From Methanococcoides vulcani (GTDB lineage Archaea; Halobacteriota; Methanosarcinia; Methanosarcinales; Methanosarcinaceae), in NCBI RefSeq assembly GCF_900111645.1, contig NZ_FOHQ01000003.1:113803-177802 (forward strand): 64,000 nt of DNA, read 5' to 3'. The first letter of the stretch is position 1. Every line of letters begins with the position of its first letter. Below the pieces are notes generated by a model. The model did not search any database and was not told the DNA's origin. It worked only from the letters and a program-made list of their open reading frames with translations. A program made the position numbers and the translations under genes. Shown piece after piece: positions 20,919 through 40,856 of this stretch.

Positions 20919-21668
20919 ATGAACTCAGACTACAGCAATAGTGGTAATGGAGTTATAACTACAGCATTACTATTGGCAGCTGGTAAGGGTAGCCGTCTTT
21001 ATCCTCTTACACACGATACACCCAAATGTCTCACAATGGTTCATGAGGTGTCCATACTTGAACGACTTGTCATCAATTTAAAAAAGCAAGGTTTCAAACG
21101 TCTTGTTGTGGTCACAGGGTACAAGGAAAAATGCATTGTTGAGTTTCTAGAAACGCGAGCTTGCGGTATGAAAATCGATTATGTTGTAAGCCCCCTTTAT
21201 GAGACCACCAATAATATCTATTCACTCTGGATGGCCCGTGATATCATTAATGAGCCGTTTCTGCTGATTGAAAGTGATCTTGTTTTTGACGGATCTCTTC
21301 TGGATGACATGTGTTCTCCTGACAGAATTGCCGTTGCACGCATGCAACCGTGGATGAATGGTTCCACTGTCACAGTCAATCAATCCCAACATGTTAAGGA
21401 ATTCCAAAACGGTATTGCCGGGACTTTTGATGAGATCAGATACAAGACTGTTAATATTTACAGTTTTTCGCTCTCTTCATGGCATAGTATTACAGAAAGA
21501 CTAGACCAGTACATTTCAGCCGGCAGAGTAAACGACTATTATGAAACCGTATTTGCGGAAATGGTGGCTGATGGTAGTCTCGCCCTTAAAACAGTCTCTT
21601 TTGACAGCAAACGATGGTATGAAATAGACACAGTTGCGGATCTGGCAAAGGCTGAGACACTATTTTAG
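20919..21668 (+). CDS. LicC/PntC-like nucleotidyltransferase
   Basis: Predicted cytidylyltransferase that activates a phosphorylated or phosphonylated small alcohol or amine with CTP. 249 residues with the Rossmann-type nucleotidyltransferase signature LLLAAGKGSRLYPLT, the lysine in TPKCLTMV, and YETTNNIYSLWMA, the Thr-Asn-Asn block characteristic of phosphocholine and 2-aminoethylphosphonate cytidylyltransferases. LLIESDLVF carries the metal-binding Asp, and KRWYEIDTVADLAKAE the second one. First gene of a plus-strand cluster with an aminotransferase, a CDP-alcohol phosphatidyltransferase and an ATP-grasp enzyme. Substrate unknown; no phosphoenolpyruvate mutase gene is in the window. Confidence 0.85.
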   Translation: MNSDYSNSGNGVITTALLLAAGKGSRLYPLTHDTPKCLTMVHEVSILERLVINLKKQGFKRLVVVTGYKEKCIVEFLETRACGMKIDYVVSPLYETTNNIYSLWMARDIINEPFLLIESDLVFDGSLLDDMCSPDRIAVARMQPWMNGSTVTVNQSQHVKEFQNGIAGTFDEIRYKTVNIYSFSLSSWHSITERLDQYISAGRVNDYYETVFAEMVADGSLALKTVSFDSKRWYEIDTVADLAKAETLF

Positions 21669-21865
21669 GCAGACAAATATGAAACAATAATTCCTTACGA
21701 CACCACGCCGCATACTTCTGGAAGATCAAAGCCGTTTTTTCAACAATCATAATGCGGGGTGAAGGTGAGGATTGCTCGTTCACTTTCCGGTTTAAAGCCA
21801 ATTCGTCAGGCTAAGACTTTAAAAAAGTGAAGTACCACCTTAAATCAATTCAAGGAAGAGAATAC

Positions 21866-38147: not shown

Positions 38148-38324
38148 TTATTGCTCTCTGCTTTTCACCCTGAGGTAAATGAAAGTAACAACTCCTGCAA
38201 TTGTGCCGGCAGGGAGTCCTACAAACACAGAGAAAAATATCCTTTCCTAAAGCAGAGCTGTTACAGCAACAGCTATTATAGCGAATACGATGAAAGCTAT
38301 CAAAAAGTGAACTATTCTTATCAT
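38148..38324 (-). CDS. Small two-helix membrane protein with an in-frame TAG (pyrrolysine or nonsense)
   Basis: From ATG 38324 the frame reads MIRIVHFLIAFIVFAIIAVA then VTALL, meets TAG at 38247-38249 (codon 26), and continues in the same frame as ERIFFSVFVGLPAGTIAGVV then TFIYLRVKSREQ to TAA 38148-38150. Both parts are clean membrane helices with positively charged ends, and the joined product is a plausible 58-residue two-helix protein. Methanosarcinales can decode UAG as pyrrolysine, so this may be a Pyl protein; a simple nonsense mutation in a small gene is the alternative. No strong ribosome site. It lies 40 bases after vorA with a hairpin in between. Family unknown. Confidence 0.5.
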
Positions 38325-38364
38325 GGTCGCTAAAAAGCAAAGTTAGCCGGAAATGACCGGCAAC
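38325..38364 (-). terminator. Hairpin and T-tract after vorA
   Basis: On the minus strand GTTGCCGG and CCGGCTAAC pair around TCATTT immediately after the vorA stop, followed by ACTTTGCTTTTTAGC. A good transcript end for the vor genes. Confidence 0.55.
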
Positions 38365-39792
38365 TTATTTAAAATTTTCTTTTGACCATTTTGCACCGGC
38401 TTCAAGGATATCCAGGTTCATCGGGATAAGCTTTGGTTTGCTTGCAAAAGTATCCTCTATCGCTTCCTTAAAGACCTTTTCCGGAAGATGGCTATCTCCC
38501 TGTGCCATGAGCACACCGAGCATGACCGTATTTGCAGCTTTTACTGAACCTGCGTCCTTTGCTATCTGCATAGCAGGTACTGCAATTGCTCTTACCCCTT
38601 CAGGAGCATCGAACTCACCTACGGTGTCATCATAGAGTATGAGACCTCCTTTCTTCACATCCCCTGCGAATTTCTCAAGGGATGGCTGGTTGAGTGCTAC
38701 AAGCACATCTGACCCATAAACAATAGGTGAACCAATGGAGTCTCCTGAGATCACAACTGAACAGTTGGAAGTTCCTCCTCGCTGTTCCGGTCCGTATGAC
38801 GGATACCAGGAAGTGTAGCGCTGATCACGGCATCCTGCACGTGCAAGTGTAAGTCCCATGCTCAAAACACCCTGTCCGCCAAATCCGGCGATCTTTACGA
38901 GCACCTGGCCAAAGTCAGGGTCCTGTACTGCATCAGGGGATGCACTGCTATCGAGACTATAGAGTTCATCGATACCCTTTTTGGAGAAATCACTCTCAGA
39001 GCGCCATAATGGTTCGGTCTCATCGAAATTATCCCTGAAGTTCATGAGAGGGAATTCCTTCTCCATCATCTCGTTGACGAACTCTGTGCTTTGTTCAGCA
39101 TTTTGCCTGAGGTTGGTCGGACATGTGGAAAGCACTTCAACGAATGCATATCCTTTGCCGTCCCTCTGAACCTCAAGAGCTCTCCTGACAGCTTTCTTTG
39201 CTTTCCTGATATGTGAAATATCAGACACTGAAACACGCTCTATGAACACAGGGGCCTTGAGGTTGTCCAGCAGCTCACACATATGCATAGGGTATCCTGT
39301 AAAGCGTGGGTCCCTTCCATCAGGACACGTAACGGTCTTCTCACCGATCAGTGTTGTTGGTGCCATCTGGCCACCGGTCATCCCATAGACAGTGTTGTTC
39401 ACAAAGAACACAGCCATCTTCTCGCCACGGTTAGCTGCCTGCATGGTCTCATTAAGACCGATAGATGCAAGGTCACCATCACCCTGGTATGCGATCACAA
39501 CAGAGTTGTCCTGTGCCCTTGACATACCTGTACCTACAGCAGGTGCACGACCGTGTGCAACCTGGAGGTTTCCACAATCAAAGTAATAGTAAGCAAAAAC
39601 TGCACATCCTACAGGGCTGATCATGACACTCCTGTCCTGGATCTCAAGCTCTTCCATAGCCTCTCCGATCAGTTTGTGCAAAATACCGTGTCCGCATCCC
39701 GGACAATAGTGGGTTGCAGTTGGTGCTGCTCCGCCTTTGCGTGGGAACTCTTCATAAATTCCGGCTGGTCTTCCAATGATCTTTTCTGCCAT
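38365..39792 (-). CDS. vorA: 2-oxoacid (2-oxoisovalerate-type) ferredoxin oxidoreductase, fused TPP and gamma subunit
   Basis: Catalytic subunit converting branched-chain 2-oxoacids and CoA to acyl-CoA, CO2 and reduced ferredoxin, or the reverse. The N-terminal TPP half has [20 protein letters not shown] and [20 protein letters not shown]; the C-terminal half (from about residue 300) is a gamma domain, [20 protein letters not shown]. The beta-gamma fusion in one ~475-residue chain is typical of the methanogen VorA type. ATG 39792 is chosen because GGGAGG lies 7 nt upstream; ATG 39798 overlaps that site. Third gene of vorC-vorB-vorA. Substrate could also be 2-oxoglutarate. Confidence 0.88.
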
Positions 39793-39794
39793 GT

Positions 39795-40856
39795 TCATTC
39801 CTCCCTTGCAGCAATTTCTTTTATTTTATCCATGACCTGATCCATTGTAATGAGGTTTCCACCCATACGATTCACAAGTTCTACAGGCTTAGTGCAACCT
39901 GTAGCAAGGCGTACATCATCGATCAACTGACCATTGCTCATCTCAACAGAAACGAAGGTTTTATCACCTGAATCTGCAAGGGCCTTCAGCTCATTTTCAG
40001 GGAATGGGAACAATGTTATCGGACGGAAAAGTCCTACCTTGATGCCATCCTTTCTTGCAGCTTCCACAGCTGAACGGCAGATCCTGCTGCTGATACCATA
40101 TGAAACCAGCACAATGGATGCATCTTCCATCATGTATTCCTCGTAATCGACCTCATTTTCCTTGACGGTCTCATACTTTTCCTGAAGTTTATAGTTGAAA
40201 TCCTCAAGCTGGTCAAAGTCCAGGAAGATAGATGTAACAAGGTTCTCCCGTGTTTCTTTTGTTCCGCAAACAGCCCACGACTTGTCAATAGCAAGTTCCT
40301 CTGCAGTTTCAGGGAACTTGAGTGGCTCTATCATCTGACCAAGCACACCATCTGCCAGCACTACAACCGGGTTGCGATATTTTGTTGAAAGCTCAAATGC
40401 CTTCATTGTGAGATCACACATTTCCTGGACGGAATTTGGTGCGATGACGATGTTACGATAGTTTCCGTGCCCGCCACCCTTTACGACCTGTGTGTAATCT
40501 CCCTGTTCAGGACCAATGTTACCAAGACCCGGACCTGCTCTCATGATGTCCACGATCACGCATGGGAGTTCTGCTCCTGCAAGGTATGATACACCTTCCT
40601 GTTTCAGGCTCATACCAGGACCTGATGAAGCCGTCAAAACCCTGTGTCCGGCAGATGCTGCACCATATACCATGTTAATTGCAGCTTCTTCTGATTCTGC
40701 CTGTACGAACTTCCTTCCAAGCTTCGGGAATGTCTGGGAAGCCTCGTGCAGGATCTCACTTGCAGGTGTGATCGGATAACCGAAATAACAGTCACAACCG
40801 GCATATAAAGCACCAATGACAACTGCGGAGTTGCCTTTTATTAATTGTGTAGCCAT
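39795..40856 (-). CDS. vorB: 2-oxoacid ferredoxin oxidoreductase, alpha subunit
   Basis: Pyrimidine-domain subunit of the same complex, 353 residues: [60 protein letters not shown], and [20 protein letters not shown]. The C-terminal half is a transketolase-like domain. GAGGTGAT precedes ATG 40856. The stop is 2 nt from the preferred vorA start, indicating coupling. Middle gene of the operon. Confidence 0.9.

What the first reader, a model, noticed from the sequence alone, without database searches (positions are those of the whole stretch)
38148..38324. Two-helix membrane protein readable only through an in-frame UAG
Seen: the minus strand encodes a hydrophobic helix, TAG at codon 26, then in the same frame a second clean membrane helix, a basic tail and TAA. 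Both halves have matching composition, and the stop lies in the loop between them. Known: Methanosarcinales with the pyl genes decode UAG as pyrrolysine, and UAG read-through outside methylamine methyltransferases is rarely documented. Inference: a Pyl-containing microprotein, or a gene with one nonsense change.
Basis: partly seen in the sequence, partly recalled or inferred. Interest (0 to 1): 0.75.

Follow-up and report, generated by a model that had tools for sequence, protein, structure and literature searches.

The report
Membrane microprotein with likely pyrrolysine codon
A methane-producing archaeon carries a tiny two-helix membrane protein gene whose middle 'stop' codon (UAG, in place of a glutamine codon kept by its relatives) is probably read as the rare 22nd amino acid pyrrolysine, because this genome has the complete pyrrolysine machinery and other ordinary genes in it are read straight through UAG.

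Summary
In detail: minus strand 38324..38148 reads 25 codons, TAG, 32 codons, TAA. Both halves belong to one family of two-helix membrane microproteins, encoded directly downstream of 2-oxoacid:ferredoxin oxidoreductase genes in Methanococcoides. Nine congeners have CAG (Gln) at the TAG site; the tenth (CAT) is frameshifted; no other copy in 112 Methanosarcinaceae genomes has TAG. That rule fails here. The genome has intact pylTSBCD. TAG ends only 8 of 534 coding-like ORFs sampled, and at least five of those eight continue as coding sequence. An FrhB-like gene carries in-frame TAG in six species (Tyr in four) with strong purifying selection after it. A nucleotidyltransferase in this window carries TAG in all nine congeners that have it, while other genera read the same frame without a stop. 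Aconitase B and a ferritin-like gene carry TAG where congeners do not. Best reading (0.74): UAG26 is translated as pyrrolysine, a neutral replacement of Gln, as shown for Thg1 of Methanosarcina acetivorans. There is no protein-level proof, and the family is dispensable, so a decaying gene remains possible.

The parts
38148..38324 (-). 58-residue two-helix membrane microprotein gene read through TAG (25 codons, TAG, 32 codons, TAA)
38247..38249 (-). in-frame TAG, codon 26; CAG (Gln) in nine congeners; proposed pyrrolysine
38250..38324 (-). first hydrophobic helix (residues 1-25)
38151..38246 (-). loop with conserved I-[FY]-F-S-x-F-x-G motif, second hydrophobic helix and basic tail (residues 27-58)
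38366..38374 (-). TTTTAAATA, candidate archaeal TATA box at the end of the upstream gene (inference; overlaps kor coding sequence, so its conservation proves nothing)
   Evidence: sequence inspection
38347..38360 (-). CCGG-6nt-CCGG inverted repeat between kor and the microprotein, kept with a changed loop in congeners
   Evidence: sequence inspection
38365..39798 (-). upstream neighbour: 2-oxoacid:ferredoxin oxidoreductase subunit (TPP_enzyme_C + POR domains); same neighbour at the homologous loci of Methanococcoides and Methanohalophilus

Best explanation
The feature is an intact gene for a 58-residue two-helix membrane protein in a Methanococcoides species. In this lineage the glutamine codon CAG at position 26 has become TAG. 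The cell has tRNA-Pyl (anticodon CUA), PylRS and the PylBCD synthesis enzymes, so UAG26 is decoded, at least in part, as pyrrolysine, giving a full-length protein with Pyl at the first loop residue. Pyl there is most likely a tolerated, neutral replacement of Gln rather than a catalytic residue. Shown: the frame, the family, the single-base difference from CAG, the pyl genes, and read-through of UAG in other genes of the genus by comparative evidence. Inferred: that this particular UAG is translated, that the residue is Pyl, and that the change is neutral. The protein's function is not established; its conserved place behind the 2-oxoacid:ferredoxin oxidoreductase genes suggests an accessory membrane role for that operon (weak inference).
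For: Complete pylTSBCD: tRNA-Pyl; PylS, PylB, PylC, PylD above curated cut-offs. Two mtmB genes and one mtbB-like gene with in-frame TAG. TAG ends only 8 of 534 coding-like ORFs in 693 kb, and 1 of 51 ORFs of 100+ aa in the window. FrhB-like gene: TAG in 6 species, Tyr in 4, and 43 post-TAG codons with e.g. 15 synonymous: 1 nonsynonymous change, G000 vs G006. Nucleotidyltransferase at window 20919: TAG in all 9 Methanococcoides genomes that have it, changes concentrated at third positions after the TAG (1/6/11), no start codon in the extension, and an unbroken frame in other genera (Ser at that site in L167). Aconitase B and a ferritin-like gene with G000 TAG. Microprotein post-TAG half: pairwise dN/dS about 0.08-0.18, no further lesion. 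Literature: a UAG reporter is read through at 20-30% with Pyl in M. acetivorans; Thg1 acquired a Pyl codon in M. acetivorans alone and it is not essential for activity (PMC2933860); no cis element is required (PMC9499178).
Against: TAG is confined to this one genome. The gene family is dispensable: 70 of 112 family genomes lack a match, and it is frameshifted in G005, G017 and G026 and shortened by TAA in G013. Purifying selection seen in the second half may predate the TAG. UAG can also terminate (the reporter was mostly terminated; pylB ends in TAG). No transcript or peptide evidence.
Confidence: 0.74

Rival explanations
1. A plain nonsense mutation in a dispensable microprotein: UAG terminates translation, the 25-residue product is degraded or inert, and the gene is starting to decay.
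For: TAG only in this genome, CAG in congeners; independent lesions of the same gene in G005, G017, G026 and G013; absence from most family genomes.
Against: No second lesion and a conserved post-TAG half; UAG is read through in other genes of this clade; in the comparison with G001 the clean gene-internal stops in G000 were two TAG, no TAA and one TGA in an already damaged gene (sorted by eye).
Confidence: 0.18
2. Dual output: UAG26 is a partial stop that gives both a one-helix 25-mer and the Pyl-containing two-helix protein, with the ratio set by methylamine supply, i.e. a Pyl-dependent switch that is itself selected.
For: UAG in Methanosarcina gives both products in a reporter (PMC2933860), and Pyl use depends on substrate in Acetohalobium (PMC8211752).
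Against: The TAG is not conserved between species, so nothing shows that a switch is selected; downstream RNA folding is only mildly better than shuffles (z -2.15).
Confidence: 0.05
3. A sequencing or assembly error turned CAG into TAG.
For: Single base, single genome, 15-contig assembly; no second assembly of the species could be examined.
Against: Near-complete, low-contamination genome (99.95/0.58); the same kind of G000 TAG recurs in other genes without matching TAA cases.
Confidence: 0.03

Closest known systems
Thg1 (tRNA-His guanylyltransferase) of Methanosarcina acetivorans
   Same: ordinary non-methyltransferase gene, in-frame UAG in one species only, sense codon in relatives, Pyl not essential for activity (PMC2933860)
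   Different: Pyl was observed experimentally in Thg1; here the evidence is comparative only, and the protein is a small membrane hairpin
Methylamine methyltransferases MtmB/MtbB/MttB
   Same: in-frame UAG in the same genome, same pyl machinery
   Different: UAG there is conserved across species and the residue is catalytic; here it is lineage-specific and in a loop
Reported archaeal Pyl code in which TAG is generally sense (Kivenson and colleagues, 2025; from memory, not held in the library and not checked)
   Same: this sample of one Methanococcoides genome looks as that work would predict
   Different: only comparative evidence here, on about 30% of one genome, and pylB still appears to end in TAG

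Membership tests
Pyrrolysine-containing proteins | host has tRNA-Pyl, PylRS and PylBCD | tested here: met
Pyrrolysine-containing proteins | in-frame UAG followed by coding sequence homologous to the family | tested here: met
Pyrrolysine-containing proteins | UAG is read as sense in this clade outside methyltransferases | tested here: met
   comparative evidence only: FrhB-like gene and nucleotidyltransferase
Pyrrolysine-containing proteins | Pyl residue observed in the protein | not testable with these tools
   needs mass spectrometry
Conserved (catalytic) Pyl site as in MtmB/MtbB/MttB | UAG conserved at the same site between species | tested here: not met
   CAG in nine congeners, no other TAG in 42 genomes with the gene
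Neutral Pyl replacement (Thg1 type) | UAG in one lineage, sense codon one step away in relatives, site tolerant of substitution | tested here: met
   CAG versus TAG; Q, E, A, S or H at the aligned site in relatives
Pseudogene by nonsense mutation | loss of constraint or further lesions after the stop | tested here: inconclusive
   no further lesion and low dN/dS after TAG, but selection may predate it
Known protein domain family | match to a Pfam or NCBIfam model | tested here: not met
   an intact congener copy matches only DUF3021 at E 0.08, below cut-off, and no NCBIfam model

The most novel reading that the evidence does not exclude
In Methanococcoides UAG has become in practice a sense codon for pyrrolysine across the ordinary proteome, including membrane microproteins, central metabolism (aconitase B) and F420-linked enzymes, so that lineage-specific CAG-to-TAG changes behave as Gln-to-Pyl missense changes; this microprotein is one of the smallest members.
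Probability: 0.6. Interest if true: 0.6.

Novelty: new member of a known kind. Interest (0 to 1): 0.45.

Why it matters
If true, standard annotation truncates or drops genes in pyl-bearing methanogens, and 'only this strain has the stop' is not a valid sign of a pseudogene in them. The genus offers a natural series of sites (species-specific, clade-wide and genus-wide UAG) in which the spread and tolerance of the 22nd amino acid can be followed and tested by proteomics.

Tried and rejected
A guessed NCBIfam number hit an unrelated family. Raw counts of stops inside aligned ORFs and identity of the sequence after stops were rejected as tests: shadow ORFs and upstream extensions dominate, and the DNA is conserved anyway. 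A first coding-score filter was too strict because it removed extensions that are ORFs themselves. Downstream RNA structure (z -2.15) is too weak to be called a PYLIS element. The original Thg1 and translation-termination papers are not held; searches for a paper on a whole-genome archaeal Pyl code found nothing in the library.

Full report
1. Observation. The minus-strand frame is as described: 38324..38148, TAG at codon 26 (38249..38247), TAA at the end. The read-through protein is a real family member: congeners encode the same protein without a stop at 78-83% identity for the nearest five and about 60% for four others. More distant copies occur in Methanolobus, Methanohalophilus, other Methanosarcinaceae and Haloferax. 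The genus is inferred to be Methanococcoides because contigs of three congeners have the same lengths as contigs of named Methanococcoides records.

2. The site. At codon 26 nine congeners have CAG and the tenth, G005, has CAT in a frameshifted copy. In the family search 42 of 112 genomes have the gene and only G000 shows TAG. In more distant copies the aligned residue is Q, E, A or S, read by eye. So G000 differs from its relatives by one C/T step. The model places the site at the first loop residue between helices 2-25 and 33-57.

3. Does UAG terminate here? The genome has pylT with anticodon CTA, pylS, pylB, pylC and pylD in one cluster and two mtmB with in-frame TAG. In 693 kb of G000 (contig C8 1-400000 and contig C9), 534 ORFs score as coding and 8 end at TAG. 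Six of those have 15 or more further codons, and four of the six continue as coding sequence by codon score: an mtbB-like gene, an FrhB-like gene, a NosD-like repeat protein and aconitase B. The fifth continuing case is the nucleotidyltransferase of paragraph 4. The NosD-like case rests on codon score and continuity of the repeats only.

4. Strongest cases. FrhB-like gene (C8:353110-354279): TAG at codon 344 in six species, Tyr in four, with the Pfam FrhB_FdhB_C match running to residue 363, i.e. across the TAG. Between species the 43 codons after the TAG change almost only synonymously (15 to 1 between G000 and G006, 8 to 2 between G000 and G004; the G007 rows of that table are void because its strand was not turned). 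Nucleotidyltransferase in this window (20919-21752, TAG 21666-21668): TAG in all nine congeners that carry the gene, 27 conserved codons after it, changes by codon position 1/6/11, no start codon in the extension, and the same frame open without a stop at 78-85% identity in other genera, with Ser (TCA) in the one copy I read (L167). These are comparative demonstrations that UAG is translated in this genus outside methyltransferases.

5. Cases like the finding. A ferritin-like 94-residue gene (C9:211138-211419) has TAG where congeners have CAG or Gln. Aconitase B (C9:245164-247830) has TAG at codon 779 with the aconitase match running across it. In congeners the stops listed for that query are TAA, which I attribute to the non-coding upstream part of my query without having read each one; G007 also lists one TAG whose place I did not check.

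6. Control. Genes of G001 compared with G000 DNA gave, after filtering by synonymous change and sorting by eye, two clean gene-internal TAG (the finding and the ferritin-like gene), no TAA, and one TGA in a gene whose alignment is broken elsewhere. Conserved coding after shared TAA or TGA was mostly a following gene with its own start (read by eye). The numbers are small and the sorting was not blind, so I give no probability.

7. Constraint on the microprotein. Pairwise dN/dS after the TAG is about 0.08 to 0.18 against the five nearest congeners, on few changes. That may in part predate the TAG. The gene is dispensable in the family: it is frameshifted in G005, G017 and G026 and shortened in G013.

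8. Conclusion. Translation of UAG26 as Pyl is favoured (0.74); a plain nonsense mutation remains (0.18). It works like the Thg1 case of neutral Pyl acquisition (PMC2933860; neutral acquisition is also discussed in PMC3639795). The function of the protein is unknown beyond its conserved place behind the 2-oxoacid:ferredoxin oxidoreductase genes.

Noticed in passing
window 20919-21752 (+): Nucleotidyltransferase whose apparent stop TAG (21666-21668) is conserved in nine Methanococcoides genomes and followed by 27 conserved codons; other genera have no stop there. In G000 the extension ends in TAA where most congeners read on.
   Followed up: yes
L151 (G000 C8:353110-354279): FrhB-like protein with in-frame TAG in six species and Tyr in four, strongly conserved after the TAG.
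   Followed up: yes
G000 C9:245164-247830 (L132 7362-10028): Aconitase B with in-frame TAG at codon 779.
   Followed up: partly
G000 C9:211138-211419 (in L130): Ferritin-like (rubrerythrin/EncFtn-like) 94-residue gene with TAG where congeners have CAG, next to a paralogue without TAG.
   Followed up: partly
G000 C8:159337-160464: 375-codon frame with TAG at codon 123 that resembles an acetyltransferase by eye; no Pfam match.
   Followed up: no
G000 C9:2387-7126: Long NosD-like repeat surface protein read through TAG.
   Followed up: no
L007, L008, L009, L010: In four congeners the two-helix protein is fused to a PD-(D/E)XK_3 / GxxExxY-like domain of about 150 residues.
   Followed up: partly
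L034 2795-3907 (-): pylB itself ends in TAG, as reported for M. burtonii.
   Followed up: no
G000 C9 near 186619: Radical-SAM-like gene with TGA at a Cys codon of G001 and a broken alignment elsewhere; probably a damaged gene.
   Followed up: no
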